Assembly (NCBI GenBank): GCA_018287875.1
Contig: JAGVVL010000001.1
Span: 9,176,001-9,240,000 of the forward strand
Direction: 5' to 3'
DNA from: Nigrospora sphaerica
Taxonomy: Eukaryota > Ascomycota > Sordariomycetes > Amphisphaeriales > Apiosporaceae
DNA length: 64,000 nucleotides
The position numbers and the translations under genes were made by a program. Shown here in pieces: positions 3,809 to 56,203 of this stretch (within the stretch, counting starts at the first letter, position 1; each line of letters starts with the position of its first letter). A model generated the notes under the pieces. That model saw only the letters and a program-made list of their open reading frames with translations, was not told the DNA's origin and made no database searches.

Positions 3809-4743
3809 AGTAAGTAAGGTTTATCAGCTTAGTTGGAATACGCAGTGCGCCGCGAACTAATTCTGAGTGCTTTTACCAGTGCCCAAAGCATTTGGGGCCT
3901 CGAAGAAAAGCTCCTGCTCGGCCTAGAAGGTATCATGTTAAATGACGCTGAGCCAGATGATGCTGGGGAACCAGCAGAACCGGAAGTACCTTCTCGTACC
4001 ACCCCACAGGGTTGCTAAGGCACGGGAGTTCCGGACTTACGGTTGAAAGTCAAGGGTGAATTGATTAAAGAGGCGGGAAAAGGTACTTGGAGGGCAATCT
4101 TCCATGTCTTTAGCAAGTGGTGTGCTGCATCGAGGCAACGTAGGATGTGCCCCGCATGCTGAAAGAAGGGCCCCACCACGGTTTTCCCTAGTATGTAGGT
4201 TTTCGTCCAGGTTGCTGGACCTTTCTTTCTCACGCTCTTTACTGGTGGCGACAGTTCCATAACTGGAGCGTTCTTTTATATAATATAACTCTTCAATTTC
4301 TTAATAACTGAAATTATATCACCTTCTGGTGTCTCAGCTAGCCGCTGGCTCCCACACGGAGTAAATAATCCAAGCAATGATTTGCGCTGAGGAGTTATTT
4401 TATAACCTGCTCTATCTTCCACTGCGCATTGTCTGATGATAGCAACTCTCTATACTCCAAGCTAACGACGCTTGCGTTTTACGGCTGTCTTGAGGAGCGC
4501 TTAGCGAAAAGATGAGGGGGAAGTGACGCGAGTCTAGATGGTCTAGATTCCGTTTATGTGGAGTCGTACGAGAAAGCTGAAGAGAGCTGAGCCCCCATTA
4601 CAATGACCACAGGGCAGCATAAATACTTGCTCGGTATCCATCCAGCTTCCACCGTAGCAAGTTATTTACACACCCATCTCAGTCCACAGGCAACATTCCC
4701 TAACTAAACCCAACATATTCTTGCCCCGATTCGCAATCTTATA

Positions 4744-33696: not shown

Positions 33697-34272
33697 TGTT
33701 GAGAGTGGTGGTTCGATTGGAAGAGGAAGCAACCCTTTATAAGGGCTCTTTCGATCTCGGAGGTCGTTTCTTATAAAGAAACACGGAAGAATAAGGAACT
33801 TCTCTTCAAGAGGAACAAGAGTGTATTGTGTGTTTGCTTGCTTGCTTGCTTGCTTCAGGACAGACTAGATACACGAAGAGGGGAGATTCAGCCTTTACTT
33901 ATACCCGTTAAACCCTTATCCTCTTAGTAATACAGAGAAGAGGACGCGTAAGTGATTGCGTAAGTGATTACGTGGCTTAGAAGCATATGAAACCTTATAG
34001 AGGTTCGTGGAGCCTCATAGGGGCTCGTGGGAGCTTCAGGGAGCCACGTAGAAACTCGTGGAAACTCGTGGAAACTTGCAGAAGCTTCCGCGTGGCGTAC
34101 GCCACGCTTGTAGGTAAAGCGGGCCATGCTTGCGGGTAAGCTGGCCCGTGCTCCAGGGTAGGCTGGCCCGAGCTTTAGGATAGGCTCGGTTAAAGGACTA
34201 GCTTCCCGTTAAGTGCATAGCTTAGTCCGTAGTGATAGAGAACGGTATAGGATAAGTCCTATACCTGCAACA
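33697..34272 (+). repeat. Solo LTR E2 with perfect TSD
   Basis: TGTTGAGAGTGGTGG to CCTGCAACA, 576 bp, with ACTAC on both sides (33692-33696 and 34273-34277). It contains short direct repeats of GTGGAAACTC type near 34050-34080. An end fragment of the same family lies at 35217-35271. Confidence 0.92.
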
Positions 34273-34850
34273 ACTACTTATATAAGCATTACAACCGGGA
34301 TTTTCTTACGGCTTATCATCTTTTATAGCGTGTTATTAAAAGGACCACCGTTTAAGGCTTTGATAAAGAGAGGCGGAAGTTTCCTACTAGTCTTCATCTT
34401 ATTAAGAATTACTACAATAGCCGCCTTCAAGTTAAATATGAAAACATTTATTACGACTTTAAAAGGTCTAAGCTAAAAAAAGATGGCTAAGCATTACACT
34501 AGCCACTTAAAACCTCTTTAGCTATAAATACAACAATAGGAAAAAGCCTTAAAAAGAGAGGTCACGTAACGGATTATAGCTAAGACTATATACTCTAAGG
34601 TGAATCGATAGATCAAATGGTCGAGCTATTAGAACAGATAAACACTAAAGAAAGTGCAGTGCCTAGTGGAAAGACGCGGCCGTAAGGTCAATTTCAAATA
34701 ATGTAATAAAAATGCCCTCAATTTTAAACCTGTAAGTCCTTAATTTAAAGTACGTTTACCACCTAAGTAAAAGTGAAGTCTAATTAAGATAATATCCAAG
34801 ATAAAAACGGTTATATACGGTGGTTTTAAAAGATGAAAAGGAGGTGGATA
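34273..34850. other. AT-rich gene-free stretch
   Basis: No gene or element was identified. The sequence is AT-rich and TpA-dense, probably decayed retroelement DNA. Confidence 0.4.
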
Positions 34851-34887
34851 ACGTGGGTGTTGGGTAAGTGGCGCAAGCGGGTGAGTG
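34851..34887 (+). repeat. Displaced right inverted repeat of pogo B
   Basis: TA followed by ACGTGGGTGTTGGGTAAGTG, nearly identical to the left end of pogo B at 7072, and ended by GTGAGTG at a gypsy-1 LTR. No pogo body lies next to it. It is the partner end of pogo B moved here by the inversion. Confidence 0.88.
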
Positions 34888-35216
34888 TGTTACAGGTTGG
34901 GACCTGGGAGATAGGCTCAGGCGCACCTGGTCTGAGCGCCTCACGAACCCCTTATATGAGGCTCCGAGTAGGTCTCTCCATTCGAACGCCAGGCTAGTGG
35001 TCAAGACCTAGGAGGGGGGAGCTGAGCAGCGATCCGAACATTCCGATCCGAACGTTCCGGTCCGAACGTTCCTATCCGAACGTTCCGGTCCAGTCTCGCA
35101 AGATTTAACGAGACGCTGCGCCCGGCCTCCTGAAGACGGTTCTCTCTCTCTTTCCTATCTAGAAAATAAACAGCATTTGGCCCCTTCGATAGTGCTTCAA
35201 GGCTCAGCCTTTCACA
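34888..35216 (+). repeat. Gypsy-1 LTR at the second inversion breakpoint
   Basis: TGTTACAGG to CTTTCACA, 329 bp, opposite in orientation to 15059-15390. The flanks GAGTG and AGCTA are not a target duplication. GAGTG is the complement of CACTC at 9617-9621. Confidence 0.92.
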
Positions 35217-35271
35217 AGCTAAGTCCTTAACGAAGGATAACGGTATAGGGGTAAGCCCTATACTTTTAACA
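35217..35271 (+). repeat. End fragment of an E-family LTR
   Basis: AGCTAAGTCCTTAACG to CTTTTAACA, matching the last 55 bp or so of E1 and E2. It is truncated on the left by the gypsy-1 LTR. Confidence 0.75.
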
Positions 35272-38200
35272 AGTATACTAAGTAGAAATTATCTAGATAG
35301 TCTATTAAGGTGTTATTTATAAAGTGCTAAACGGTTGCGGGTCCGTTCGTTAATTTAAATAGGAGTACATTGTATTAAAAGGTGCTATAGTAAGTATAAA
35401 ACAATGTTAACTCTTTTAATCCTGGCGCTATTTGGATCCGGTAAAATATATATTGGATATTTAAATTTGTGAAAACCTTTGCCTTAAAGATCCAGGCTAT
35501 AGTCTCCTCAATTAAGGGAAGTAAGTGTTAGTCCTTATAAGTAACAGATTTAAGCTTTCTAAAGTCTATATAAAAGCGTAGTCCTCTATTCTCTTTAAGC
35601 GCGAAAAGGATTGGTGCCACTTAAGGCGCTTCACTTAGCTTAATAAATCCCTTTGCTAGGTTCTTAGTTACGTACTTCTAGTATATCTCTATTTCCTTTA
35701 ACGATATCTTCTATAAGCCGAAGTATCCTAAAAGCTTATCTGGCTTAGTATTACTATTTAAGATAATTTTATAGTTGTAGGTGCAATATAGTGGTAACTT
35801 ATTAAACTTAAACTTGCTCAATATATTTAACTACTTATTATATTATTTTAGTACTATTTATAATACTTTTTTACAAAGAGTATCAGAGTTTAAAGGTAAC
35901 ACATCCCCTTATAACGTTTGCTTCTCAAGGATAATCTTGTTTATCGCGTGGAGGTTAATAACGTGCTAATCTTAAGGGTTTCGGTAGTAGGATATTTCTA
36001 TCGCCGGTGTGGAGATAAAAGCAATGTCGATACGTTCTTTAAAACTTTCTACCGAGCTCTAGCGTTGGATAAAGGGTCCTTAAGAGTCGCGTTCTATCGG
36101 GGACGACGGTGCCCTCGATAGCGGTGTTAACAACAGTGGAGGCATGTCAGTTAGTTCAGCTAACATGCATTTTATCTTCACGATACCTTCATTGTTTCGT
36201 TATCTTTATGTATAAGTGGCTATAAGTTGTGTTAGGATTTTCTTATATCGAATTATCGGTGGCAACTTCTCGCGATCAGTGTCGGTCGTATATAGACTAC
36301 GGATAACTAAAGGATCCGGACGTTGTAATCTTTGGCCTGCTAAGCGTTACTGGTCTTCTATAGCTATCTTTTGCTTATAGCGTTAGGCGTCTGTATTAAA
36401 GGTAGGGTTCTATAGAAGCTATTTAGCTTAGTCTAGCGATATAATGTTCCATACACTAGTAAGTCCATTCCTTAAGGAAGAAAAGACGATAACGACGAAT
36501 ATCTAGTGTTATATTATATGTTTCTAACTATTTACGACCGACTATTATGTTGTAGCGTATATTAAGGACTAGAAAATGGGTTCGGGCTATAAAACAGCTC
36601 TAGATTTAAAAGTGTCCTAGTAAGGCAATGTTCACTAATTATAATAGCGTACTATCGAATCCGCCAATAAGTTAAGGATAAAAGTTACGAATAATAAGAA
36701 GATATAAATATTAGAGGAGCCTTTATATAAAGGCCACGCTTATAAACAGGTATCCACTTACTCTAGTGTTAATAAGGGTATAGGTAGAGAGAGATAATTT
36801 ATTATAAGCTATAGTATAGAGGAAAGTAAACGGTCTTCCCTTTAAGTGCTTGCTTAAAAAATTAAAGGATCGCTTATCTTATATGTTCTTAATATCGACG
36901 ACTTCCTTTAGATCGGAGTCTACTTATTTAAGGGTATCTAGTTTTCCGAGTCTATAATATCTTCGATTTAGTCGGAGTTAAGAATCTCGGTTGTAAGATT
37001 ATCGGCGTTCGAATAAGGATAGGGAGTTCCTATCCACTGGCTAACTAAAGCTTTAATACAGTTTAAACAGTCGATATTAACTCGCTTCTCTAGGCAGTTA
37101 TTAACATAATAGCTAAGCTTTTTATAGTTAAGATAAAGTCGGTTCTTTAAAAGGCGTTAGAGTTTATCTAGTCTATATTAATATACCAGGGTTAAAGTAA
37201 TGTAACGCTTCTCTAATAGCTTAGCAAACTCCAATTAGTCAACAGTAGAGATAAGGGTTCGGCAAGTGCTGCTATAGTTTCCGCGGTTTATACAACGTTT
37301 AAGGTCGTCACTCTTAGTAAACTAAAGGACTAAAGCGATTTAAGCGGCCTCGGTTATAAACATATTAAATCTAATGCTACTTTTAATATAAGAGGAGGTA
37401 AGGGCTATTTATAACTCTATTGTAAACTTTCGGTTAAAGAGGCGCTTCCAATTTGTTTTAGCTTAGCCTGTTTCGCCAGCGGGTTAAAGAAACTTGTTTT
37501 TAAAAACCTGAAAATCTATTCACGCGGTCATATAAAGGTTTTTAAATTTTAAAGAGGCAGCCTTTATTTAGTTGGGGTCATAGTACTGTTATTAAAGATA
37601 CGTTATTAAGGCCTTATACGACTAGATCGGACTAGGGTGCGTCTATTAAAGGTAGGGCTAGAGATTATTGCTGGCCTCTCCGTTAAGGCGGCTTTCAATA
37701 TAGGCCTGCTTAAAGAGGTCTGTGGGGAAATGGGAAGCGTTTACTAGGATCTTATTCTTAACCTAATAGAACCAAGTCTTAAACTTGACGATATCCTTAA
37801 ACTTCTAATTATAGAAAACCGGGGGGTTAGGGAAGCGCTTAACTTTTAGTCGGGAGCCCTCAATATCGGGAAGTATAAGCGGTGGTGTGCCTTAGGTACT
37901 TCCTGCTATCTGCCGGATTAAGGCAGCTATCTGCTATTGGAGATCCTTTATCTGTCTCTCTAGCTTAAGGCGTCTATGGCGCTCTTAGACGAATCTGGAC
38001 TTAGTGTTGTCAACGTCGCTGGTGTTATTTGTATCGGCGGAACCCTCACGGGTATTGTCGAAGTCATCCTTGTGAGTTTCTGTGATCCGGTGGAGGGATC
38101 CACCCTGTTTAGCTGGCATCTCAGCGGTGTGTGTGGGTCGCGCTTGCAGCTGCGTACCTGTCGGAATGTCTGTAGGGTTTGGGATATTAATAGAAGCCTT

Positions 38201-38441
38201 CCTAGGCGGATAAGGAGACTTGTAGTTATATCACGGTTTAAGGAACGAAGGATCTGTTGATGACCCAAAGGTTCTATTAAGATGCGAAAACTACAGGTGA
38301 AGAGGAAAAGAAGAGGAACAGGCTCCTCTCAGTCACTGTTTGGCAGGAATATATCCAGCCAGCGGCGGTACGTACCGCCAGGCAGCGGTAAGTCGTCCAT
38401 GCGTTCCCATGCCCTTGTACCTATGTACCCATGCCGTAACA
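35272..38441 (-). mobile_element. Gypsy-2 fragment: 5' LTR, gag, RT (3' truncated)
   Basis: On the minus strand the 213-bp LTR (38441-38229) is followed by a gag frame beginning near MPAKQGGSLHRITETHKDD (about 38120). It continues with ERHRRLKLERQIKDLQ and a Retrotrans_gag-like core with FKTWFYQVKNKILVNASHF-type sequence, SHFPTDLFKQAYIESRLNG and SYKALITYL (about 37800-37500). RT motifs VAPILFALKENRGLRFYIDF and YIFYRIQIAPGLKELTLF lie at about 35650-35430, and VLLFKLTNGPAT near 35340. The sequence ends just before the YLDD box at about 35272. RNase H, integrase and the 3' LTR are missing. Heavily RIPed. Confidence 0.82.
38229..38441 (-). repeat. LTR H2 (213 bp), 5' LTR of gypsy-2
   Basis: On the minus strand it reads TGTTACGGCATGGG to CGTGATA, the same length and sequence family as H1. 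It lacks the D-type LTR found in H1, so it preserves that empty site (GATCTGTTGATGACCC, about 38248-38263). Confidence 0.88.
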
Positions 38442-40676
38442 TTAATATTATACTATTCCACACCACACTGTCTTACCGCTGGACACTTAAAACACCTATT
38501 CCGTCGATAGAGGTCCAACCTATTATATTTATAAATCGAAGCTTAACGCCTGCTAAGTAACGATATAGCCTATCGGAGCTTAAAATAGCAGTATTAGTTT
38601 AGGCCTCTAAAAAGGCTAGAACAGTTATTTAATCCTATAATAAGCCACCAGTCGTTTTAATAGACCACTCCGCTACAAAAGGCATTGTCGAGTAGACATC
38701 GCTGAATATAACCAGTATAAATCGCGTTAATAGATATTTAGTTAACGCGTTTATTTATTTATCGCAATACTAGTACCGTGTCTTCTATCTAGTAGGATGT
38801 CCCAATTTAGTACCGGACACGTTATCGCACCTGAAGATAAAAGACGACTAGCCTAAGGACGACAGGGTGATCCTTAACGACATTTAGCTAACAACCGAGG
38901 CCTTAATAGACGACAATCTCCAACGTAGGATAGCTAAGGCTTATAACAAAGACATACATTAGCGTCCTATTCTAAACGAACTGCGACAACTAGTAAAAGA
39001 GGTCGTTAGTAAAGACACTAACTAGATTTTCCGTCGCTCCAGATATATATTTAAGATTGTTAACAGACTCTTATACTATATTAGATAACACTTTTAAAGT
39101 AGACGCCTTTATATTCTATAGGCAATAGTTTAGCAATTCCTGGAGGCTGCGTACAATAATAAGCATTATTTCGGATAAAACCGAATACCTAAGGAACTAG
39201 ACAGACTGGCCATTTTTAGGAAGACGTATATAGTTAAGAAATATATCCAGCACTGTCTTATTTATAAAGTTAATTAAACCGATCGGAACAGATTAGTAGG
39301 CAATTATTACCTAATTCGATATAAGCCTATGCTTATAAAGACTATCGCAATCGATTTTATTATTGGATTACCTAGTATAGACAATAAGGGCACACCCTGG
39401 CAGTTAAAGACAGACCATACTTAATACGACCAGCTAATAACGGTGTCCTACCCTGTTTTTAAGCAAATAGCCTTAATCCTTAAATATGCTACCTATACTG
39501 CGAGGGACTAAGGAACCGCACTTACGCAGTTCCAGGTGCTGGCAGATTAGGAGATCCTTTTGGGCATCGTATCCAACTAAAACCGGAAGTTCACGTTAAA
39601 GTTCTGAAAATGATTATAGTCCTTATCAAAAACTAAGCTTTTAATAATAACAGTATATTACCTATAACCTGACGGCTTATCGGAATAGAAGAACTAGATA
39701 GTCGAGATTACTATCCGCTACTATTAATTTAAACACCTAGATAAGCCTTAAATTAACGTTATCTTTAACCTTTAATAAAACCTTAACAATACTTATAATA
39801 GTAGCACTATAAGTATATCCGCTTATAAGTACCTTTTTGGATATAAGCTACTTAGGCTATTAAACGTAGTTATTAAGATTAGTAATAATACACCGTTACT
39901 TGAAGTTTGCTTTTTAAGACCATATATTTGGTAGGATACTTAATTAGTAATGGATTTTGTAGCAGTATAAGCTAAGTTAAGGTATAATAACCGGCACTAA
40001 CTGTTGAAATTCGACATCGGCAAAATAGTTTTCCTTTATCTTTATTATGGATACCACTTATTAGAACGCCCGTTTAAAGCCTACTCTTAGCAACGTGCTG
40101 GCCTATATAAGGTGCTGGAGCGCGTCGGGCGGCTAGCGTATCGACTCGACATTCCGCCTAACTCTCGGATCTATCCGGTTATCTCCATTGCCCACTTGTT
40201 GCTTAGCGCCGAAGGCGAAGACCCTTTCTAGCGAACGACGCCTCCCCCGGGTCCCGTCCGAGACAACCAGCCCCGCGCTAACGATGAATACAAAGTGGAG
40301 GCAATCCTTAAGCATCGCTAAAGCAAGCGAAAGGGAGGCCTAAAGTATCTCTTAAAGTGGCTTAACTATAGCTATAAGTATAATGTCTGGCAATATAAGA
40401 CGGACCTTGTTAGGGCCACTAAGCTGATCGGCGAATACTGGGAGCGCCACGGAGGTGCAGAGGCCCACCGATAAGAGCGAGGATTGGAGACGCTGCGACG
40501 TCGCGGCCGACAGCGCGAGGCGAAGGCTTGAGGCCTCCATGGACTTTGAATTATATAATACGGAGGATCGTTGAGGACAGCGACATGCTTTGCTTTGGAG
40601 GCCGGCATTTGATACGTGGCGGGGGTAGGTAAACAGTAATAAGGTGCGATATCCTTGTCAAGGAGGGGTCCTGCTA

Positions 40677-42609
40677 AGCTAGGGGGTCGATCAAGGGACA
40701 GGCCCATCAAACCGCCACGCGTTTTAAGACATCGCCATGTAACATTAAAGCAAACAAAACCAATTATCTTAACAACCACAATAGATACAGACAGACCGAT
40801 TAGCTCAAAGAGACTGTTATCTCCTCCTCTATGTCAGAAATGCTTTCTGCAACCGAACTTCCCGACGCGATCGATGGCGACTGCGTAGTGACCGCACCAG
40901 TCTCACCACCAGGTGTCGCCAAGTCCTCCTTGACTTTGCGAACGTCTAGCATAGTCACGAATCGCTCTTGAGCAGTTTTCTAAACCTTGCGACGTTTTTG
41001 GGGCTTCTGGAGATCCAGCGCAGCAGCCAATTGGTCGCGTTCATGCTTAAGGCTGGAGATCTCGGCGCTTGCAAGGTCTAAGGCCTTTCCAGTCTTCCTG
41101 AAGACCTGGCGTAAGGTGGCATTGCTGTATACTGAGTTAACCACACGCAATTCGCGATGGATGTGCTGTATCTGCCTTGAAGACCTTAGGGTCTTAACGT
41201 CTATAGCGGACATCTCCGATAGCAGGGGGTCCTCTGGCAGCTGCAGAACGCTCCAAGTTGACCCCTCCGGCCTTTCCTGGTCCCTTTGCCTTGCCAGTCG
41301 GCTGTTAATGGCCTTGAGGGGGTCCCTTGGATAGATACCGGTCGCTTTCCAGCCTGTGGCAATGTGCTCTGGAGTCAGGGCTTCCTTCCGAGCCTTTTTC
41401 CAGGCCTCCAGGAACTCCGGTTTCTTTGGCGTCATTGTTAGACTAGACACGCAGGCCTGGCGAAGGTGTTTCCGGTACGCGCGCTTCAACACCGAAAAGG
41501 GGCCAAGGTCTAGAGGCTGGAGGACCTGCGAGGTGTGTGCTGGAAGGAAGTTTAGCTAGACCTTAACCTTAAAACACTCCAATATGAACTCCTCGCTGCA
41601 GTGGCTGGCATGGCCGTCGAGTATAAGGTGGCGCCACTGCTTGGGGTCGTCTGGAGTAGTCTGTGGTAAGAACACCTGTCTTAGCCAGCGCAGGGCAATT
41701 AAATTGGAGGTCCAGCCGGCCTCTAAGGCTTTAAATTGCCAGTCTGCGAAGTCCTTGTCGTCTGATTGAGTGGTAAACCATTGCTGTTAGACCTGCCTTC
41801 CCTTAAAGATAACTAGGGGAGACAGGGCTTGGCCAGCTGCAGAGACAGACTCCAGAGACGTCGTCCACTCGCCTCTCGTGGTGTCTAAAGTGAAGACCTT
41901 CGTGAGAGCAGATGGTCCGATAACAAAAGGGCAGTCTCCAAGGCCGATCTAAGCTCCAACCTCGTCAAAGTTCCATATGTGCTCCTTAAGGATATCGCGG
42001 ATGCGCTCCTCGTTCAGCCTCGAGAAGAACTCCTCGATGTTTTCGCGTGTGGCGCCGTTGACGCGCTGGAAATCCATTCCCCTTGAGAGCATAGTCTTTA
42101 GCTGCGGCCAGCGCCTAAAAAAACGGCGATGCCACCTATCTCCGATAGTGTGGCTGCTGCCGGACTGACAGATAATTGACTGCGCGAAGAGCTTGAAGCG
42201 GTTGTGCTGAGGAGCCCAGCCAAGTCTGACCTGGAGCAACACCCACTGGATTAGCCAGTGCTCCTGGACCTCACTGAGGGCTTGACGATGCCTTTGAGCA
42301 GTGCGTTTAAGAGGCTTACACTCGAAACGAGACGTGAGGTAGTATCTAGAGACTCTGTATTGCTTGGCGACAGACCGGATAGAATCTCCTTGGCAGACTT
42401 GGAGGAGAGCGGCAGCCAGCTGCAATTCATCCATAATAATAGATATCAAACGAAAGAACAGAATGTGGCAATTCGAATGGTATGACTTCTAAATAAATGT
42501 AACCGTAGGTGGTTGATATATTCGGTGTTGAAGCAAAAAAGAAACACCTTAAACTGTCGCCAGACGCGTGGCGGTTTGATGGGCCTGTCCCTTGATCGAC
42601 CCCCTAGCT
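40677..42609 (-). mobile_element. Pogo-type DNA transposon C (46-bp perfect TIRs)
   Basis: Inverted repeats begin AGCTAGGGGGTCGATCAAGG at 40677 and are perfect for 46 bp at the other end (42609). TA flanks both sides, and the length is 1933 bp. The empty target is preserved in D1. The transposase on the minus strand is nearly whole. Closest relative in this window is element F, then G. Confidence 0.95.
40980..42449 (-). pseudogene. Pogo C transposase, about three stops
   Basis: Starts at 42449 or 42431 (MDELQLAAALLQVCQGDS). It has an HTH with SIRSVAKQYRVSRYYLTSRF, a CENP-B-like region with WHRRFFRRWPQLKTML, and a DDE core with IWNFDEVGA, ending at a TAG (41949). The frame continues IGLGDCPFVIGPSALTKVFT, LILDGHASHCSEEFILECF, TSQVLQPLDLGPFSVLKRAY and GWKATGIYPRDPLKAINS, with two further TAGs. 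It ends at 40980 after a Lys/Arg-rich tail (QKPQKRRKV). All three stops are at places where relatives have Gln or Trp. This is the best preserved transposase in the window. Confidence 0.9.
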
Positions 42610-46084: not shown

Positions 46085-49000
46085 TCACAAATCCATCTTG
46101 ACGACGATCTCGGTGCTGCGGCCCTCGCGGCGCGCCTCGAGGATGACATGGGCCGGGGCCCCCTCGGTGGCGTCGCCCTCCTCGGCCTGGGCAATCTTGA
46201 CCATGAGCTCGCTGTGTGTGACGACGGCGACAAAGTCCATACTGCCCATGAGGTGCCGGCACCAGCGCACGACGACGGCCTGGCCCGCAGAGTCGAGGCT
46301 GTCAAAAACCTCGTCCACCAGGATGTAGCGGGCCCGGTGCGCCCCGCGCGCCTGGCTGACCTGGAGCAGGGCGAAGAACAGCGCGAGGTCGATGCGCTTG
46401 CGCTCTCCGCCGCTGCGCTTCGCATATGCCAGCGAGGACCCGACGCCCAGCGAACCGTCGAGCAGCGGCGCTGTCTTCTCCCGGCCCGACGGCGGCAACA
46501 TCGCGTCAGAGCCCGCGTCGGACGGCAAATTGGCGGCAAAGAGAGACCGCAGCATCCCCGACGCCACCTCGCGCGTGTGACGCGTGTCTTCATACAACAC
46601 CGCCAAGATCTGCGTCGCGATGGCATTCACCTCCTCGAGGCTCTGCTCCAACACGTAGCCGCGGAAATTGGTGCTGCTCTCCTTGGAACGACGCTTCGAG
46701 AAGGCCGATTCCCAAAAGGCAAACAGCTCGCGCGCCGACGCCAAGCTTTCTGCCATGTCGTCCAGCGCCGCCAATTGGTCCGCCAACTTCTTGCGCGATG
46801 AAATCTCTTCCTCGATGAGCCTTTTGTACGTCGCCATGTCGTTTTGTGTGCTGTTCCGGGAATCCTGCAGCTGCCGCAAGCTTTGTGTAAAGGCCAGGGT
46901 GGTCTTCTCCTGTTCTTTCTTGAGCTCCTGCCACCGCCTGTTGGCCTCATCGAGCTTTTGCTGGTACCGCGCCAGCTTGCCTTGCCACGCTGCCTGTTCC
47001 GACGTAGTCTTCGCCAGTTGCTGTGCTGCCACGCCAAACTCTGCCTTGATAGCGTCGGCCCTGTCCGAAGGAATCTCCTTCAAGGTGTCAGTGGCGTGCT
47101 GCTCTGACACGCCATGTCGCTCGGCCACCACCGTCGTTACTTTGTCAAGCAACTGCGTGGCCTCATCGAGGTTGCCGCTGCTAGTAGCGACGGCCTTCTG
47201 CAGAGCCTCCGATTCATCCTGGTGACGCTGCTGTTGTTGTCGATCTTCAAAGGCCGCGCGGGTAGCGTGAATCCGGGTGTTGAACCATTCTACGCACCCA
47301 AAGCAGAAGTACCCGAGGCTCGTCATGACTCGACGATACCACGGGCTCGCATTGGACCGGTCTGCACAGTCGGACTGACTACCCCCCTTAGTGGAAAGCC
47401 GGAGCCGGTGTTGTATGGGGTCCAAATGGCCGATGATTCGTGAAACCAGACGACCCTGCCAAGTGGAGGGTTGAGGTGCCGCATTCATGTTGCGCACCAG
47501 GGCGGCCTGGGCGTCTCGCATCCGATGCTTCTTTTCGAGGATTTTGGTTTCAGCCAACAGGCGCTCACGGTCGACAGCGATCCGCAGGTCAGCTCCCCGT
47601 GCGAGTTCTGCCAGCACAGCCATTTGGTCCCGCTGTTCGCGACAAACCTTATCTAAGCGGAAAAGGTTTGCCTCGATCTCGTACTTGATCATCGGATCCT
47701 CTCGGTCCTTCTGTAATTTGTCCCGCTCCGCGGCCATCCGCCTCTCGGCTTTTTCTTGGTTGCCTTGCACCATCACGAGGCCCTTGGAAATCTTTTCGTC
47801 TTCGCGTCGCAGGGTATTCTGCTTCTCTTTGAAGCCGTCAACCCTCGTGTCAATGTGTTTCATGGTGCGCTTGAGTGCTTCGCGTTCATTTTCCAGCGGA
47901 GTCTTATCCGAGTCGAGCTCCTTTAGCATCTGCCGCGACGCGTTCCCGTAGTGCTCGACTGCCGAAAGGCCCAGCGTGGATTCAATCAGATCCCTGCGCT
48001 GGATGGGCGTGGCGCCAAGAAAACCCGCCGCGCTCTCGGGGCCAAGAATGACGGTCCTCACATAGGTATCGTAATCCGTGCCAAGAAGGTCGTCGAGAGC
48101 TTCCTGTGTGGCTCGGGCGTCGCCTTTCTCGAGCTGCGGCTGGATTTTCCCATGGCGCGACACGACGACACGGTTTGCAAACTCGCGATGTTTCCGATAC
48201 CGCGTAATGCTGTAGCCGTTCTCGAACGTGACGCTGACGCAGCAATCCCGACCCGCATCGTCGTTGACGACGTCATTGACTGAGAGGCCTGCTCGCATAC
48301 AGCGACCGAACTGACTCCAGACCAAAGCCTCGAAGATCGTGCTCTTTCCCGCGCCATTGGCCCCGATGACAAAGGCTAGTCCGTGAGGCAAGGCTTGGAA
48401 GTCCAGGGTGACGGTCTCGCGGATGCCAAGAAAGTTGGTAATGGTTAGCGTCTGCAGCTTGGCATTGAAAACGTGCCTCGCATCTGTACCGGCTTCCGGC
48501 GCAACGGTGGCTGATGTAGTAGGAGTTGCCGCTGAAGCCAAAACCTGGTTGTACCCCATGGAAAAGTCCCCGTCGGTCGAATGTTGAATCAAGGTATGTC
48601 CGATGCGGAGCAGCACGTCACGACGGTCTTCTAAAGTCTCGCCGAGTGTCAAGTTGGACAGGAACTGTTCGGCGAGGCCTGTAAAATCCAGAGGCTGAAC
48701 CCGCTCGACCTGTTCGTCTGACACGCTCGCAGTCGCGGCAGGTTCGTCGACGTACCCGCAAGGGTCTTTCCGATCCGAGGCCGAGGTCTCTGGCGCCGCC
48801 GCCGCCTCGGTGTCTTGGGCCGGCATGGTGGCACCCAGCCCTCGGATGATTTGGGGGTTGGCCGCGCTTCGAGACGGGGCCATGGGGTTCCAGTTCCGTA
48901 CACTGCGGGTGCCCAGAGAGAGTAGCGCGTCGCGTGCGGATGCGTGTTGGAACGTCGAGCGATGACCGAGCAGCATGACATCCTTGCCCTCCACGGCGGC

Positions 49001-49873
49001 CGGCTCGACGCGGCCGCGGAGGACATCGTCGATTGGGACCGTGATGAAATGGACGCCATGCGGGTTCAAAATGAGCTCATGGCTGAGAGTTTCGGGGTCC
49101 AGCAGCACGACTCCGCGCTTTTCGTCGCAGGCGTCGGACCAGGTCAACTGATGGGGTGCGCCGAGGTAGGTGACGCTCCCGTCAAGACGGGAGGCGTCAT
49201 CGGCGGGGAGCTTCTTCCTGGCGTCCTGCAACATGGTCTGGTGGCTGTGGAAGTGGCCGGTAAAGGTTCTCGCCAAGGAAGCAAAGTTGGCGGGGCCGGT
49301 CAAGCCTCGGTAGGTGAAGGGAAAGTTGGTTTGGCCAAGCAGGGGATCGATGACATGGCGCTGCATGACGGCTTTGTGGAGGGCGAGGTGGGCAAAGCCG
49401 ACGGTCTCGCGGGCGTCGGTGGGGTCGAGACGAGACACGGCGGCCGTCAGCTCCCGCTGGTCCTCGCGGAAGGGCAGGGTCAGCACGCGGCGGCCGTCCC
49501 AATCGTGCGTCGCCACATCGGCGTGAAGCGTGACAAAGGGGGCCAGGCGGCGCATATGCAAGGCATCGAGGGCCGAGGTGGCATACTCGCGCTTGTAAGC
49601 CAGGTCATGGTTGCCCAGGATGACATTGACGTGCGGCACTTGGTCGCTCAACTGGCCCAGGAAGCGGTAGCAGGCCGACAACACTTGGGTGGACTGGGTG
49701 GTGCGGCTGGTGAGCAGGTCGCCGCAGATGACGACGCGGCGAATGTCGTAGCGCTGGGGCAACGAGGCAATCCACTGCGTCGTTTGCGTGATGCGGTCCA
49801 GGTCACGCGGGCGGAAGTGGACGTCGCTGAGGAGCAGCCATCGTGCCGTCGACGACGCCAGGTTCGCGCGCAT
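46085..49873 (-). CDS. Mre11/SbcD nuclease - Rad50/SbcC ATPase fusion protein
   Basis: One intronless frame of 1262 residues. Residues 1 to about 290 are a calcineurin-like phosphoesterase with the Mre11/SbcD motifs DVH (17-19), GD (51-52), GNHD (87-90), a His in the FAHLALH segment (160-166) and GHFH (206-209). These are expected to bind two Mn ions for exo/endonuclease action on DNA ends. About 396-430 may be the helical part that clasps the ATPase coil; 431-470 is a linker. The Rad50/SbcC ATPase follows: Walker A GANGAGKST (504-512), coiled coil about 655-795, a CFGC CXXC motif (857-860, 47294-47305) at the turn, returning coil about 866-1060, signature SGGERKR (1154-1160), Walker B YILVDE (1183-1188), D-loop SLD (1192-1194) and H-loop His1220. 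Eukaryotic Mre11 and Rad50 are normally separate proteins; this one is shorter, without the Mre11 C-terminal DNA-binding arms, and looks closer to SbcCD or phage gp46/gp47. No localisation signal was identified. The TauD gene lies 388 bp upstream on the same strand. I am confident of the domains; the cellular role (DNA end processing, mitochondrial or nuclear) is inferred. Confidence 0.93.
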   Translation of the reverse strand: MRANLASSTARWLLLSDVHFRPRDLDRITQTTQWIASLPQRYDIRRVVICGDLLTSRTTQSTQVLSACYRFLGQLSDQVPHVNVILGNHDLAYKREYATSALDALHMRRLAPFVTLHADVATHDWDGRRVLTLPFREDQRELTAAVSRLDPTDARETVGFAHLALHKAVMQRHVIDPLLGQTNFPFTYRGLTGPANFASLARTFTGHFHSHQTMLQDARKKLPADDASRLDGSVTYLGAPHQLTWSDACDEKRGVVLLDPETLSHELILNPHGVHFITVPIDDVLRGRVEPAAVEGKDVMLLGHRSTFQHASARDALLSLGTRSVRNWNPMAPSRSAANPQIIRGLGATMPAQDTEAAAAPETSASDRKDPCGYVDEPAATASVSDEQVERVQPLDFTGLAEQFLSNLTLGETLEDRRDVLLRIGHTLIQHSTDGDFSMGYNQVLASAATPTTSATVAPEAGTDARHVFNAKLQTLTITNFLGIRETVTLDFQALPHGLAFVIGANGAGKSTIFEALVWSQFGRCMRAGLSVNDVVNDDAGRDCCVSVTFENGYSITRYRKHREFANRVVVSRHGKIQPQLEKGDARATQEALDDLLGTDYDTYVRTVILGPESAAGFLGATPIQRRDLIESTLGLSAVEHYGNASRQMLKELDSDKTPLENEREALKRTMKHIDTRVDGFKEKQNTLRREDEKISKGLVMVQGNQEKAERRMAAERDKLQKDREDPMIKYEIEANLFRLDKVCREQRDQMAVLAELARGADLRIAVDRERLLAETKILEKKHRMRDAQAALVRNMNAAPQPSTWQGRLVSRIIGHLDPIQHRLRLSTKGGSQSDCADRSNASPWYRRVMTSLGYFCFGCVEWFNTRIHATRAAFEDRQQQQRHQDESEALQKAVATSSGNLDEATQLLDKVTTVVAERHGVSEQHATDTLKEIPSDRADAIKAEFGVAAQQLAKTTSEQAAWQGKLARYQQKLDEANRRWQELKKEQEKTTLAFTQSLRQLQDSRNSTQNDMATYKRLIEEEISSRKKLADQLAALDDMAESLASARELFAFWESAFSKRRSKESSTNFRGYVLEQSLEEVNAIATQILAVLYEDTRHTREVASGMLRSLFAANLPSDAGSDAMLPPSGREKTAPLLDGSLGVGSSLAYAKRSGGERKRIDLALFFALLQVSQARGAHRARYILVDEVFDSLDSAGQAVVVRWCRHLMGSMDFVAVVTHSELMVKIAQAEEGDATEGAPAHVILEARREGRSTEIVVKMDL

Positions 49874-50260: not shown

Positions 50261-51593
50261 CTACGCCTTAAAGGACGTCTCGTACGGCGGCTCCGCCTGC
50301 GGTGTGATGCGCGCCAGGTGCCTTCGCTGCCCGCTCTGCCAGTCGACCAGGGCCGAATGCTGGGTGACGCGGTTATCCCACACGACGACGGTGCCCTCCT
50401 CCCACTTTACGCGCGCCTGGAAATCCGCACCGTAGGCGAGGTGGTCGTACAGGAACTTGAGGAGGGCATCCGACTCCTCTTTTTTCATGCCCACGATGTC
50501 GCGCGTGACTGCGAAGGCGGCGTGTGAATAGGACTTCTTCGCCGTCTCCGGTCGGCGGGGGAAAGAGGGGGGGGGGGGGAGAGGGGGATGCATAGGTATG
50601 AGGTAGGTACCTAGGTACCTAGGTATGTGGGGAAAGAGGGCTGTACTCACATTGCGGATTCACGTAGAGGGCCTTCTCGCCCGTCACGGGATGCGTGCGC
50701 ACGATGGGGTGCGCGTGGGTGACGGGGGCGCGTCGCACGATGCCGCCGCGGGCCAGCGAGGCGGCGGCCTGTTCGTGCCCCGAGTGCGTCGCGCGGAGCC
50801 CGTGCAGACGCTCGCGGAAGAGCGGGCTCAGGCGGTTGTAGGCCTCGGCGGCGTTGACGAACAGCGTGTCGCCGCCCGCGTCGGGCTTGTCGAAGATGTA
50901 CAGGAAGGTCGTGCCCGGCGGCTGCGCCTCGTACGACACGTCCGAGTGCCACGCCACCGAGCTCGTCCGCGTCGCGAAGAACTCTTCGGCGCTCTTGTCG
51001 CCCTCGCCGCGGTGCACCAGGTGGATTTCGGGGTAGCCCGCCGGCGCCCCCGACGCCGGGTGGCAGTGGTGCCGTCCGAAGTACGCGCCGAAGTCGAGCG
51101 CCTCTGGAATCGGCAGCTCCTTGAAGTCCTGGTCCCGGAACGCCACCACCTTGCGCTCCGCTACGAAGCGGGCCAGCTGATCCTTGCCCGCGTTGCTCAG
51201 TGAGCTGAGCTGGACGCCTCGGACTTCGGTTCCGATAGACGGCGTGAGGTCGCTTCTTCTCACTCCCTGGCCCAGGAGCTCGGGAAAGGACGGGTCGGCA
51301 TCATTGCCGTGGTCGTAGTGCTCAAAGGGCTCGAGAGGGGGAAACTTCTGCTCGGGGTCCCATGTCGGGAGGTAGTGAGGGTACTGTGTTACGATCCCTA
51401 CTGTCAGCATCCCCTCGTCCTCGGCTGTTCCGCCTCTGCTCCCGCACCGCCACATCCATACCTTGGCCCCGTTCTTACCCTCCTCCACCTCCTTCGAGTA
51501 TTTTGTGGGGGAGAGCTCTTTGTAAGCACCGAATTGCTTGGGCGCCTGCAGCGTCAGCTGGGGCTCAACCAGTGTGGTCGTCGTTGATGACAT
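50261..51593 (-). CDS. TauD/TfdA-family Fe(II)/2-oxoglutarate dioxygenase (3 exons)
   Basis: Joining 51593-51462, 51383-50651 and 50508-50261 gives 370 residues. Intron 1 (51384-51461, 78 bp, GTATGG...ACACAG) is a multiple of three without a stop, so unspliced it would only add 26 residues; splicing joins GKNGAK to YPHYLPTW, as in fungal relatives. Intron 2 (50509-50650, 142 bp, GTGAGT...GCAG) holds a run of G on the plus strand and is required to reach the last exon. Iron ligands: the HxD in VAWHSDVSYE and the distal His in VTQHSALVDW; RRHLARITPQ supplies the 2-oxoglutarate-binding Arg. The family uses 2-oxoglutarate and O2 to oxidise sulfonates such as taurine, or related small acids, in the cytosol; the substrate here is unknown. 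ATG 51593 is preferred over 51653 because a TATA box lies only about 30 bp upstream of the latter. Confidence 0.9.
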
Positions 51594-51683
51594 GTTGCGT
51601 GCTGGGTCTTGTGTGGTGCTTGATATCGCTTGTCCCGGGGCCGATTGGGGCATTTCCTCGCAGCGTTGGGGTCTTGCACCGCA

Positions 51684-51693
51684 TTTATTTATA
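51684..51693 (-). promoter_or_regulatory. TATA box of the TauD-type gene
   Basis: TATAAATAAA on the minus strand. The expected transcription start would fall about 25-35 bp downstream, near 51655, which favours the ATG at 51593 as the translation start. Confidence 0.6.
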
Positions 51694-51699
51694 TCCAGC

Positions 51700-54600
51700 C
51701 CTGCTCCCCTGTCCCCGATTCGATTCCGTCATAGTGCCACGCGTGCGGCATCGGGCCCGAGGCCGCCGCAGAACCATACCTATTAGCCGGGCCACCCATC
51801 AGTGCTCAAGCGTCGGTGCAATTGCGACACGACTCGACACTGCCTCAAGTCTCCACAGGAATCTACCAGCAAATCGGGGCATGTCGACGATCCTATCATG
51901 CTCAGACGCCCAGCACGCCATATCAGCACATCAAGGCGTCGTACTCCTACCCCTCCTGGTTGTGGCGGGGTTGATAAGACGATGGCCGTGACGCATTGGC
52001 CGCCTCGACGGAATGTTGTTATTGGAGTCGCAAAGCACGCCATGCGCGGATCCGGCCAACGGCACATGGCCGACGCGTTGTTGCCGACAAAGCTAAATCT
52101 CTTGCTCAAAAGCTGCCGGATTAATCTTGACCTTCATATTCTCGACCCTCCTAGCATTCCATCCACCCGTGCCATAATTGGAACACATGGCTTACATTAA
52201 TTAGCCCAAGCTGGGCTTGCCGAATAACGCAACCTTAGCCCAACCACGAGCCGTCGTGGAGTTGGCAAACATCGAAATGTATGAGCCTCTGTTGCTAAAA
52301 AGAATCCGTTCTGCGGCAAATGTATCCACTTCAATTGTCAGCGTAGTGAAGCTATGATATCGCAGATACACTACCACCTGCCATCCACTCATCTCCGGCC
52401 ATACGCGAGCAAGAAGAACACTGATAGTACGAAATCCCTACTTGCTGCCACGTTGCTGCATATCGTGGCAACAATTATATGGGATACTGACGAGCCTCGA
52501 TGATGTCGTACCTAGGTCGAGACGATTGTGGCGCACGGAACAGGATGTATATACAAGAAAGCAGCTGCCGCATCTATGCATGAGCGAGAAGTGATCGGAG
52601 CTACGACACTGGACTTCTACCTACTTTCTAGGTAGGACTTCAAGTATCATGGCTCCTTCGGCTGCTGGAATTTCCATGGTACCCATGCGCAGAAGTTCAG
52701 CAGCAACTCACGGGAGGGATTTTCGAAGTCCTTCACTATCTAATCGCTTTTTTCTTCCCAAGCAACTTCTTCACCTACCCTTCGACACCCAAGTCCGTTC
52801 TTCCACATACGGAAAGGAACTGAACTCGAGGTAGGAAGGCCTTAAGGGACTTGTCTCTATTTTCTAAACAGAGCTAGGTAGATAGCATCAGTGATGTCTA
52901 GGTATCCTCTCTACCTCTCAGGTCCACCAGTCCTCTTTTATGCCCAAGTCTTCTAGCTCGGGCCGTCCCTCGGATCCTTCTGGAGACGCCAAAGTCCCAC
53001 GCACAATCCAATGTGGCAGATATTGGTGGGTTTATGTCATCTGCCACATCCTTTGGGGTCGATTTCCCAAATGAGACACACCAAGCTCCCTTTTCGGTTT
53101 AGCAAACCATCTCTCGGTACCACAGCTACCATTTTGCACCTGTTTTGAGTGATTACCTATGTCCTTATATTCTCTCTTAAATTAATATCCGTTCAGTGGA
53201 AGAGCAAGCGGAAAGTGCCCTCCTTCACATCAACCTGATGGATACTCTATTAAATGATTCTGCTGCGGCTATGGGTGATGACCGACACTCGCAGCAGGTA
53301 CGGTATACATGGTGCGTACGACGGTTCCGTCGTAATCCCTGCGCCGCTATGCGGGCCGCTTAGATCGAACGGTGGAACGTTCAATGTGGGCCCTTAAGTC
53401 TACCCCCCCTCCCCTTTAAGTGAGGGTGTTACCGCAAGTATTTTGAGCTGAACAGTAGGCAGTCTTAGTGGTGGGGGATATACGCGGGGGGGTCCCTCAT
53501 TTTGGCAGAGCGGTTCGTACAGGTGCCATTAATACCACCGGTAGGCTTCCAAGGTGTCTAGAGGCGTGGGTACTTGAGCCATATTGGCAGCACGCAGGAC
53601 CGAGACGAAATGACTAAGAAGGACCACTGACGTCGTCCGGCTCCGCAGCTTTTGGGCAGATGCGCATTCCGGAATAAATTCCGGCGCCCTCGCCGAGATC
53701 GAAACCCGTACCTTGTCATAATAGCTTGGATATGAAATCGTTCTCGCAAACATCGCCCCTTGACGCGCCGTCTTGTCGGCAGCGCGACTCGGTACTAGAC
53801 CGTAGCGCCAAGTCGGACGAAGATCGGAAGGCATAAGCCCAACTAGACCAAGATCTAGGGCACGTAATGCCCTGGGCAATCGAAAGTCGGCTACGCGGCT
53901 GGCCCACAAGCTGGCCAGGCAGGTCTGACTGGACAAGCATAGGGGTCGAGCCATGAGTGGAGGCTGAGTGAAGGATTGCCATGGTTGTTGTTATCGCGCT
54001 ATCGCGTCGGGACCAGTGAGAATTATCGAATTCGTCTAGAACACAAACCGGCCCTTCACCAGGCCAAATGTTTTCAACGGCCTCCCCACTAGGCGGCCGT
54101 GGGGCAGCGGGGGTGTGGGAGCTCTGGAAGGGGCGTCGGGTAGAGGTTATTGAGTGGATTCGTGATGCAGCACGGTTCTCACAACTGTCGATAGATATCG
54201 GCCGCTCCCCCCGTCTCTCTAGATACAAGCTACGGAGCCCGCGAGGCTCAGTTTTCGTTCAGAATGAGCCCATACTGCCCAGCCACGGGTCTGGATCGTG
54301 CCAAGCGGCTGAGACGCCCGCCCTGGGCTGAATAAGCTCGCAACCCCTGGGCCGGATCGGCTTCGGATGGACCTAGCAAGTCGGTCGTTCCGCAAACGAA
54401 ACACGAGGGAAAAAAAGGTAGCGACGCCCTTTCGCAACCGGTAAAGCGATATTCCGGCGGGGAGACGACGGTACGGCCGTCCGATCCCCCGATCTGACTT
54501 GCCAAAGTACGCTAGGAAGACCAGCGACCGGGCTCAAGACGGACGAAGCGACCTGCCACGCACTGCGTTGCACCCCCCTGCGAATTCCGCCCTTTTCAGC

Positions 54601-55177
54601 AGCGAACGGGTTGAGTCAGGATGCGGCCAAGATGGGAGGCACTGGACTCAAGCTGTGCAATGGTCCATCGTACGGTCTTTAGCCTCTCGGCCAAGGCGAC
54701 GGAGGGGCGGGCAGCTAATGCCGAAACAGTAAAGGGGCCACGCAGCCAAGTGAGCTATGCGTTTAAACTTTGGCTATCCTTCAGCCTTACCCCAGTCAGT
54801 GCCAGTCCAACCGGTTCTGGGGCAGGATTTTCACGTCGGGCCCAGAGTCCCGATACGACTCCCGTCCAGCGACCGCTGTGCCCATATGATGCAACATGAC
54901 GCTCGGGACTTCTCTCCGACCGTGGCGGGTGTGCCCACCGAATGACTCGATCCCTTTTGTACGATCCCGTCGACACGAGGGGTTGGGCAACTAACGGTGA
55001 GGTCGGGCAGGACCCCAATTGAGCGAAACAAGGCTTCGGCTCCGTCGCATCCCATAAGAATTCAGGCCCTGCCAAGTCCCGGCCCCTTCCCTCCATTCTG
55101 ACCTCTTGGCCCCCCGCTCTTGTGGTTGATCTCGCGGTCCCGGCCCCCAACCAGATCCAACGCCCTCACAGACCATC
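51700..55177. other. Intergenic stretch, no supported gene
   Basis: Frames of up to 170 codons occur on both strands but none shows a domain, signal peptide or intron pattern. The DNA is not visibly RIPed (no dense TpA), so ordinary but unrecognised short genes or ncRNA cannot be excluded, especially at 53500-55000, which is GC-rich with overlapping open frames. Confidence 0.4.
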
Positions 55178-56203
55178 ATGACGGGCGAGACGGGAGCAAT
55201 CATCGACACCGTGCCCCTATCGCGGGCCATGCTGATGGCCAGCTTCCTGGCCGTCGCCTGCTACAACTCGGTGGAGATTCTCATCGCCACTCTCGGCACC
55301 TTCAAGCGCCGTCGCGGCCTCTACTTTTGGAGCCTCATCGCGGCAACGGTCGGCATACCCGTCCACGCCATCGCCTCGGTCCTGCGCTACTTCGCCCTCG
55401 CGCCCAACGTGCCCATGGCCGTTTTCGTCGACCTCGGCTGGTATCTTATGGTGACGGGCCAGTCCCTTGTGCTGTATTCGCGGCTGCACCTCGTCATGGG
55501 CGACATTCGTAAGCTGCGCTGGGTCTTCGCTATGATCGTTGCCACCTTCTCCCTCATGCAACTGCCGACGTCGGCCCTATTCCTCGCCTCCAACGTGCGG
55601 CCCGACGATGGCGGCGTGCTCCGCGCCTTCCAGATCTTCGAGCACACGCAGCTGGCCTGCTTCGCCGTTCAAGAGACGGTCCTGTCTGGCCTCTACGTCT
55701 GGGAGGCCTCGAAGCTGCTGAACCGGCTCAAGATCACCAAGGGCGTGCGCGTCCGCACCGTCTTCCGCGAGCTCGTCGCCCTCTTCGTCGTCGTCGTTGC
55801 CTTTGACGTCACCCTCCTGTCGACCGAGTACGCCGGCTACTTTGACATCGAAACCACCTACAAGCCCGTCGTCTACGGCATCAAGCTCAAGGTCGAGATG
55901 ATCGTCCTCAATCACCTCGTCACCCTCGTGCGCTCCGGCACCTGCAGCTGCCAGGACTTCGCCACCGACGAGTACACCCTCGGAACCAACGCCCAGTCCA
56001 TGCTGCAGTCGTCCGACCAGCACCCGCTGCAGCTCGTCCACTCGGCCAGTGCCCAGGACGTTATTTATCAGGGCCGCCCCCGAAAGCAGAGTCAACAGGG
56101 ACCCCCCCCGGCGGGCGCGACGTTCCTGGCCCGGCCTGAAAGCATATTTCAGGGGAGAGTAAGGAAAACGGGGAAGCATGCTCGTTCTATGAGTTTCAGC
56201 TGA
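55178..56203 (+). CDS. Seven-transmembrane fungal integral membrane protein
   Basis: A single 341-residue frame. Hydrophobic segments are at about 15-39, 48-72, 80-104, 114-138, 157-178, 196-220 and 230-251, giving seven helices, a very short N terminus and a cytoplasmic-type polar C tail of 90 residues with basic clusters. The layout matches the fungus-specific DUF7703-like / rhodopsin-like integral membrane proteins, whose function is unknown. Conserved-looking elements are YNSVEI in helix 1, DLGWYLMVTGQSLVLYSRLH in helix 3, and the ELVALFVVVVAFD and YGIKLKVEMIVLNHL segments in helices 6-7. It has no introns and GC-rich third positions, like the fusion gene. It could be a G-protein-coupled-like receptor, but no ligand or G-protein motif was seen. 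Confidence 0.82.
   Translation: MTGETGAIIDTVPLSRAMLMASFLAVACYNSVEILIATLGTFKRRRGLYFWSLIAATVGIPVHAIASVLRYFALAPNVPMAVFVDLGWYLMVTGQSLVLYSRLHLVMGDIRKLRWVFAMIVATFSLMQLPTSALFLASNVRPDDGGVLRAFQIFEHTQLACFAVQETVLSGLYVWEASKLLNRLKITKGVRVRTVFRELVALFVVVVAFDVTLLSTEYAGYFDIETTYKPVVYGIKLKVEMIVLNHLVTLVRSGTCSCQDFATDEYTLGTNAQSMLQSSDQHPLQLVHSASAQDVIYQGRPRKQSQQGPPPAGATFLARPESIFQGRVRKTGKHARSMSFS

What the first reader, a model, noticed from the sequence alone, without database searches (positions are those of the whole stretch)
46085..49873. Single-polypeptide Mre11-Rad50 (SbcD-SbcC) fusion in a fungus
The frame shows a full phosphoesterase set (DVH, GD, GNHD, GHFH) followed by a full Rad50 ABC-ATPase (Walker A, coiled coils, CXXC, signature, Walker B, H-loop) with no stop or intron between. 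Mre11 and Rad50 are separate genes in eukaryotes and SbcC/SbcD are separate in bacteria. A fusion fixes a 1:1 ratio and suggests an independent DNA-end-processing enzyme, perhaps for defence against foreign DNA, for organelle DNA, or acquired from phage/bacteria. All parts are in the sequence; the role is inference.
Basis: partly seen in the sequence, partly recalled or inferred. Interest (0 to 1): 0.87.

Follow-up and report, generated by a model that had tools for sequence, protein, structure and literature searches.

The report
Fused Mre11-Rad50-type nuclease in fungi
This fungus carries, besides its two normal DNA-break repair genes, an extra gene that joins both enzyme parts into one protein; one half looks more like the version carried by bacterial viruses, relatives occur in many moulds and may have passed between distantly related ones, but its job is untested.

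Summary
One intron-free 1262-aa frame (46085-49873, minus strand) holds an Mre11-type nuclease, capping domain, helix-loop-helix and Rad50-type ATPase. The nuclease, Walker, signature and H-loop residues are kept in at least 119 of 121 aligned proteins. Relatives at 81-85% and at 38-49% identity share the whole architecture, so it is no assembly artefact. The genome has separate MRE11 and RAD50.

The kind is known: Yoshida et al. 2011 (PMC3175470) described 13 Mre11/Rad50 fusions, none fungal. New here: a large fungal clade; an ATPase half that resembles tailed-phage gp46 proteins (signature motif; tree support 87/88), while grouping with R555-like viral fusions is rejected (p-AU 0.009); no zinc hook; and sequence identities partly at odds with species relationships, suggesting transfer between fungi. 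The nuclease-half tree is unresolved, and descent of the ATPase half from RAD50 is not rejected (p-AU 0.096).

Most likely an accessory ATP-dependent DNA-end or hairpin nuclease of phage gp47/gp46 type. Few homologues leave room for a mitochondrial presequence. Activity and role are untested.

The parts
46085..49873 (-). Whole fused gene, 1262 aa plus stop, one open frame
   Evidence: full-length homologues
49154..49846 (-). Mre11/SbcD-type phosphoesterase (residues 10-240): D17-H19, G51-D52, GNHD 87-90, H162, GHFH 206-209
48893..49126 (-). Capping domain (residues about 250-327)
48695..48889 (-). Low-confidence linker (residues 329-393), variable in the family
   Evidence: pLDDT under 50; alignment
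48578..48685 (-). Helix-loop-helix (residues 397-432), candidate Rad50-binding domain
   Evidence: helices 397-407, 412-415, 418-432, ten-residue mean pLDDT 62-81; chain A of the E. coli complex 7yzp aligned over 10-433, rmsd 5.7
47954..48460 (-). Rad50/SbcC-type ATPase N-lobe (residues 472-640) with Walker A GANGAGKS 504-511 and Q-loop lacking Gln
   Evidence: Pfam AAA_23; phrog_77 E 2.7e-53
46724..47956 (-). Short coiled-coil arms (residues about 640-1050), no conserved zinc hook
47294..47305 (-).
   Evidence: 0 of 120 homologues
46088..46723 (-). ATPase C-lobe (residues 1051-1262): signature SGGERKRIDLA from 1154, Walker B/D-loop ILVDEVFDSLD 1184-1194, H-loop H1220
46394..46417 (-). ABC signature RSGGERKR (1153-1160), phage gp46-like form

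Best explanation
The gene encodes a single-chain version of an Mre11-Rad50 (SbcD-SbcC, gp47-gp46) nuclease: a metal-dependent phosphoesterase nuclease, a capping domain and a candidate Rad50-binding helix-loop-helix, then a Rad50/SMC-type ATPase with a short, hookless coiled coil. It most likely works as a homodimer in which two ATPase halves clamp DNA on ATP binding and the tethered nuclease halves cut at blocked ends or hairpins. It is accessory to the fungus's own MRE11/RAD50. The ATPase half most likely descends from the gp46 lineage of tailed phages and phage-plasmids, and the gene has probably moved sideways among Sordariomycetes and into Phyllosticta. Shown by sequence: fusion, catalytic motifs, canonical genes elsewhere in the genome, lack of the hook, phage-like ABC signature. 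Inferred: activity, dimerisation, DNA substrate, phage ancestry, transfer. Guess: biological role.
Against: The phosphoesterase tree does not resolve an origin: fungal+viral fusions p-AU 0.362, fungal+own MRE11 0.139, fungal+phage pairs 0.300, none rejected. In the ATPase tree, fungal+own RAD50 (0.096), fungal+E. coli SbcC (0.068) and the phage rows alone as one group (0.057) are not rejected at 0.05; the canonical side held two sequences, several branches are long, and most fungal rows were flagged for unusual composition. The missing Q-loop glutamine is shared with T4-type gp46 but not with the SPO1/phage-plasmid rows, which keep it and are the nearer ones in the tree. All 21 two-gene phage or plasmid rows keep a CXXC in the coil, which this family lacks. 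No close donor: 45 pattern matches, 0 confirmed in genome contigs; other non-fungal relatives at 35% or less. F. solani with F. globosum is 90%, as plain descent would give; unequal loss of old paralogues could mimic transfer, and no housekeeping control gene was compared. No expression, biochemical or genetic data.
Confidence: 0.67

Rival explanations
1. It is an old eukaryotic Mre11/Rad50 fusion, shared with the moss, diatom, prasinophyte and Dictyostelium fusions of Yoshida 2011, inherited vertically and lost in most fungi.
For: Such eukaryotic fusions exist; the fungal clade is diverse, 38-49% identity between the query and most rows.
Against: The named homologues among the 240 rows listed are Ascomycota, Sordariomycetes apart from Phyllosticta (six species looked up; the rest recalled; unlisted rows not seen). 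Some identities are at odds with taxonomy. The other eukaryotic fusions were not obtained here, so this is not excluded.
Confidence: 0.15
2. It came from a giant-virus (Mimivirus R555-type) fusion.
For: Same domain order; giant-virus proteins (Tupanvirus, Yasminevirus, Harvfovirus) among the best BFVD fold matches.
Against: ATPase half: held together with the viral fusions the tree is rejected, p-AU 0.0089; 0 of 17 viral fusion frames carry the phage-type signature. Those 17 come from environmental viral contigs fetched by similarity, not Mimivirus itself, and the phosphoesterase half does not reject the union (0.362).
Confidence: 0.08
3. It arose inside fungi by duplication and fusion of canonical MRE11 and RAD50.
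For: Held together with own RAD50 the ATPase tree is not rejected (p-AU 0.096); with own MRE11 0.139.
Against: No Mre11_DNA_bind hit at E up to 1, while the own MRE11 has one; a short hookless coil, against about 956 coil residues by the script's cut and CLLC in own RAD50; a different ABC signature and Q-loop.
Confidence: 0.05
4. It serves mitochondrial DNA.
For: This protein's first 16 residues hold R2, R11 and no acidic residue.
Against: Those residues run straight into the first strand of the nuclease. Its motif starts at position 10 or earlier in 124 and 16 or earlier in 145 of 155 homologues; 8 have more than 30 residues before it, and 15 in which the motif was not found were not counted. 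Internal targeting signals were not tested.
Confidence: 0.06
5. Assembly or annotation artefact.
For: None found.
Against: Full-length homologues at 81-85% and 38-49% in other assemblies; one match in the own genome, this gene.
Confidence: 0.01

Closest known systems
Mre11/Rad50 fusion proteins (Mimivirus R555, Dictyostelium, moss, diatom, Micromonas, Clostridium plasmid, Deferribacter megaplasmid, Bacillus phage 0305phi8-36), Yoshida et al. 2011, PMC3175470
   Same: Mre11-like half first, Rad50-like half second in one chain; capping/HLH-length region between in most; present beside canonical genes in most cellular cases
   Different: No fungus listed; R555-like viral frames fetched here lack the ABC signature (0 of 17) and do not group with the fungal ATPase (p-AU 0.009)
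T4 gp47/gp46 and SPO1-type SbcD/SbcC-like phage nucleases (phrog_100, phrog_77)
   Same: Best PHROG matches of both halves; SxGE[KR]xRIDLA-type signature; Q-loop Gln missing in T4-type; short coil
   Different: Two genes in 20422-1, S-BM1 and T4; CXXC in the coil of 21 of 21 two-gene rows; SPO1-type and phage-plasmid rows keep the Q-loop Gln; 21-24% identity over the ATPase half
Listeria phage LMTA-57 recombination exonuclease (1009 aa)
   Same: SPO1-type gp47 and gp46 annotated as one protein; best BFVD fold match, E 9e-39
   Different: A close relative, phage 20422-1, has two genes there, and the two matches differ by one base in length, so this fusion may be recent or a sequencing error; not examined further
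E. coli SbcCD
   Same: Fold of both halves; NCBIfam SbcC best hit E 3.9e-31
   Different: 107.8 bits, far under the family cut-off of 478.5; separate genes, hook and Q-loop Gln present
Fungal MRE11/RAD50 (this genome's own)
   Same: Motif order of each half
   Different: Separate genes on other contigs, long coil with CLLC hook, different signature CSAGQ

Membership tests
Mre11/Rad50 fusion proteins (Yoshida 2011) | One frame with N-terminal Mre11-like and C-terminal Rad50-like domains | tested here: met
Mre11/Rad50 fusion proteins (Yoshida 2011) | Capping and HLH region plus linker between the halves | tested here: met
   for capping and the helices; docking of the HLH on the coil not tested
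Mre11/Rad50 fusion proteins (Yoshida 2011) | Canonical separate genes in the same genome (seen in most cellular cases) | tested here: met
Mre11/Rad50 fusion proteins (Yoshida 2011) | Lies outside the canonical clades | tested here: inconclusive
   favoured; union with own RAD50 p-AU 0.096 and own MRE11 0.139; only two canonical rows in each tree
R555-type viral fusions as a lineage | Common ancestry of the ATPase half | tested here: not met
   p-AU 0.0089; signature 0 of 17
R555-type viral fusions as a lineage | Common ancestry of the phosphoesterase half | tested here: inconclusive
   p-AU 0.362
T4/SPO1-type gp46 ATPase lineage | SxGE[KR]x[RK][ILV][DN] ABC signature | tested here: met
   159 of 170 fungal proteins; the query
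T4/SPO1-type gp46 ATPase lineage | Phylogenetic grouping with phage gp46 | tested here: inconclusive
   support 87/88 and 91/93, bootstrap under 95
T4/SPO1-type gp46 ATPase lineage | CXXC zinc hook in the coil | tested here: not met
   0 of 120 at the site and 4 of 170 anywhere in the coil, against 21 of 21 two-gene rows
Canonical SbcC (NCBIfam TIGR00618) | Score over the curated cut-off | tested here: not met
   107.8 against 478.5 bits
Canonical eukaryotic MRE11 | Mre11_DNA_bind domain PF04152 | tested here: not met
   not listed at E up to 1; present in own MRE11
Mre11-Rad50 nucleases by activity | ATP- and Mn-dependent end or hairpin cleavage | not testable with these tools
   needs purified protein

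The most novel reading that the evidence does not exclude
A phage recombination nuclease pair was captured by filamentous ascomycetes as, or then turned into, one chain without a zinc hook, and now spreads laterally as an accessory gene that attacks foreign or aberrant DNA (transposon intermediates, linear plasmids, incoming DNA) beside the fungus's own MRE11/RAD50.
Probability: 0.12. Interest if true: 0.85.

Novelty: new variant of a known kind. Interest (0 to 1): 0.52.

Why it matters
A second Mre11-Rad50-like enzyme in many common moulds would mean that end processing in these fungi cannot be read from MRE11/RAD50 alone. A natural single chain without a zinc hook is also a handy object: it would show which parts of the Mre11-Rad50 machine (hook tethering, separate subunits, Q-loop glutamine) are dispensable for cutting. 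If the phage ancestry holds, it adds a DNA-processing machine to the phage-type enzymes taken up by eukaryotes.

Tried and rejected
Zinc hook: rejected, 0 of 120 at the site and 4 of 170 in the coil. Mitochondrial presequence: not supported. Starship cargo: no DUF3435 match on contig C1 among 31 matches; this does not exclude a decayed element. Defence families: the PADLOC hits shown (mad3, LmuB, AriA and others, best 25 of 33) fall in the ATPase part or the coil and were read as generic Rad50/SMC-like similarity. Bacterial donor: genome-contig scan gave 45 pattern matches, 0 confirmed. The family-wide Metallophos search of the own genome (22 places) did not list the fusion; its domain scores only 25.7 bits. 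Search for relatives of shorter length: a 596-aa piece was used so that the candidate length limits leave out most full-length fusions. It gave 14 proteins among 973 candidates: 6 of fungal type at 57-68% (5 with fungal names), at least 2 of which still hold the GNHD motif and so are shortened fusions or gene models, then 8 others at 26-35%. First ATPase tree left out 12 rows and three fungal rows were under half filled; replaced. First phosphoesterase tree replaced. Membrane segment at the coil apex: best 19-residue hydropathy at or over 1.6 in 15 of 168 homologues, 0.62 in the query; not pursued. Literature: nine searches listed nothing on a fungal fusion; the library holds open-licence papers only. 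For PMC3175470 I read parts 1-3 of 5 and searched the main text for six terms (0 for 'fung'); the other papers were seen as listings with abstract starts only.
Full report
WHAT IS THERE. The frame 46085-49873 (minus strand) is open for 1262 codons from ATG, 1287 from stop to stop. The window is positions 9,176,001-9,240,000 of contig C1 (9,288,021 bases) of a 51.6-Mb genome in 33 contigs; the gene's nearer edge, its start, lies 62,148 bases from the contig end. Pfam gives Metallophos at residues 13-103, AAA_23 at 476-705, SMC_N at 473-1229 and a sub-threshold SbcC_Walker_B at 1150-1203. NCBIfam's best is SbcC at 3.9e-31, 107.8 bits against a cut-off of 478.5. PHROGs' best are SbcC-like phrog_77 (2.7e-53) and SbcD-like phrog_100 (1.9e-20).

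CONSERVATION. A search of 5.8 billion proteins gave 239 proteins at E up to 1e-3 among 7990 scored candidates; the best 120 were listed. A second search from a Phyllosticta member gave 229 among 7995, 120 listed. The two lists hold 170 distinct proteins. Those with organism names come from Sordariomycetes, plus Phyllosticta (Dothideomycetes); lineage was looked up for six species and otherwise recalled. The unlisted rows were not seen, so the range may be wider. In query plus the 120 homologues the nuclease and ATPase motif residues are kept in 119 to 121 of 121; the Q-loop glutamine is not. Nor is the zinc hook: 0 of 120 at the aligned place, 4 of 170 anywhere in the coil. All 21 two-gene phage or plasmid rows have a CXXC in the coil, 17 of them CPxC, and so do both canonical proteins; of the viral fusion frames 6 of 17 do.

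OWN GENOME. A search with the whole protein finds this gene only. Canonical MRE11 lies on C12 (Mre11_DNA_bind hit; two frames), and canonical RAD50 on C33 as a 1307-aa frame with a CLLC hook. Codon position-three GC is 0.755 for the fusion, 0.717 for RAD50 and 0.815 for the main MRE11 frame, so base composition shows no sign of recent arrival.

ANCESTRY. The ABC signature of the fungal proteins (SGGERKRIDLA and variants, 159 of 170 by a strict pattern) is the tailed-phage gp46 form; a looser pattern finds it in 58 of 66 phage ATPase frames and in 0 of 17 viral fusion frames. Both sets of viral contigs were fetched by patterns from alignments that include fungal proteins, so they are not a neutral sample. 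T4-type gp46 also lacks the Q-loop glutamine, but the SPO1-type and phage-plasmid rows keep it. In a 58-row ATPase tree the 11 fungal rows form a clade (100/100), join the 30 phage rows with 87/88, and within them an 8-row group that holds the SPO1-type and phage-plasmid rows with 91/93. Forcing them together with the viral fusions is rejected (p-AU 0.0089); forcing them with own RAD50 (0.096), with E. coli SbcC (0.068), or holding the phage rows alone as one group (0.057) is not rejected at 0.05. The phosphoesterase tree (57 rows) supports the fungal clade (100/100) but no partner (0.362, 0.139, 0.300). So phage-type ancestry is favoured for the ATPase half and open for the nuclease half. No close donor was found: the 20 best-ranked phage records matched at 23-27%, one rhizobial plasmid ATPase at 36% over residues 470-650, and the genome-contig scan confirmed none of 45. 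No frame fused in the second viral scan (0 in 80 loci). One SPO1-type phage record, Listeria phage LMTA-57, does annotate gp47 and gp46 as a single 1009-aa protein and is the best BFVD fold match; its relative 20422-1 has two genes there.

SPREAD AMONG FUNGI. Phyllosticta citribraziliensis is 75% identical to Discula copy A, which is 61% to Cryphonectria and 58% to Coniella of its own order; Discula also holds copy B at 46%. F. solani is 86% to Chaetomium strumarium (another order) but 64% to F. culmorum, and C. strumarium is 77% to C. fimeti; against this, F. solani is 90% to F. globosum and 83% to Ilyonectria. A 47-row tree joins the two Phyllosticta proteins and three unnamed ones to Discula A with SH-aLRT 100. 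Lateral transfer is the simplest reading of the Phyllosticta case; old paralogues lost unevenly could explain part of the rest, and no control gene was compared.

WHAT IS KNOWN. Yoshida et al. 2011 described 13 Mre11/Rad50 fusions in Mimivirus, five bacteria (some on plasmids), a phage and six eukaryotes, with no fungus among them. Nine searches of an open-licence library listed no paper on a fungal one. The kind is therefore known; the fungal clade, its phage-like ATPase and its missing hook are the new part.

VERDICT. A real, conserved, accessory single-chain Mre11-Rad50-type protein. A nuclease mechanism is likely by homology; activity and role are untested.

Noticed in passing
window 34001-40000: AT-rich block (38-40% GC) in a window otherwise at 40-63% GC, lying between two DDE_1 transposase pieces; looks like decayed transposon sequence.
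   Followed up: no
window 30264-30851 and 40983-41555, minus strand: Two DDE_1 transposase pieces (E 8e-19 and 6.6e-9).
   Followed up: no
window 50622-51728, minus strand: TauD/TfdA dioxygenase frame (E 6.9e-39) upstream of the fusion on the same strand.
   Followed up: no
window 55130-56200, plus strand: DUF7703 protein (E 3.4e-61).
   Followed up: no
window 4666-6033: Long overlapping open frames on both strands in a 60% GC stretch; the two longest have no Pfam match at E up to 0.001.
   Followed up: no
own genome, contigs C11, C13, C18, C33 and others: 31 DUF3435 (Starship captain-type, name recalled) matches, several with stops, none on C1.
   Followed up: no
homologues P0012 and P0125: Discula destructiva carries two copies of the fusion only 46% identical, in different clades.
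   Followed up: partly
coil apex of the family: In part of the family the most hydrophobic stretch of the coil lies near the place where a hook would be (best 19-residue hydropathy 1.6 or more in 15 of 168).
   Followed up: no
L195 1393-4422 (Listeria phage LMTA-57): gp47 and gp46 annotated as one 1009-aa protein in one phage record, two genes in its relative 20422-1; real fusion or sequencing error not settled.
   Followed up: partly
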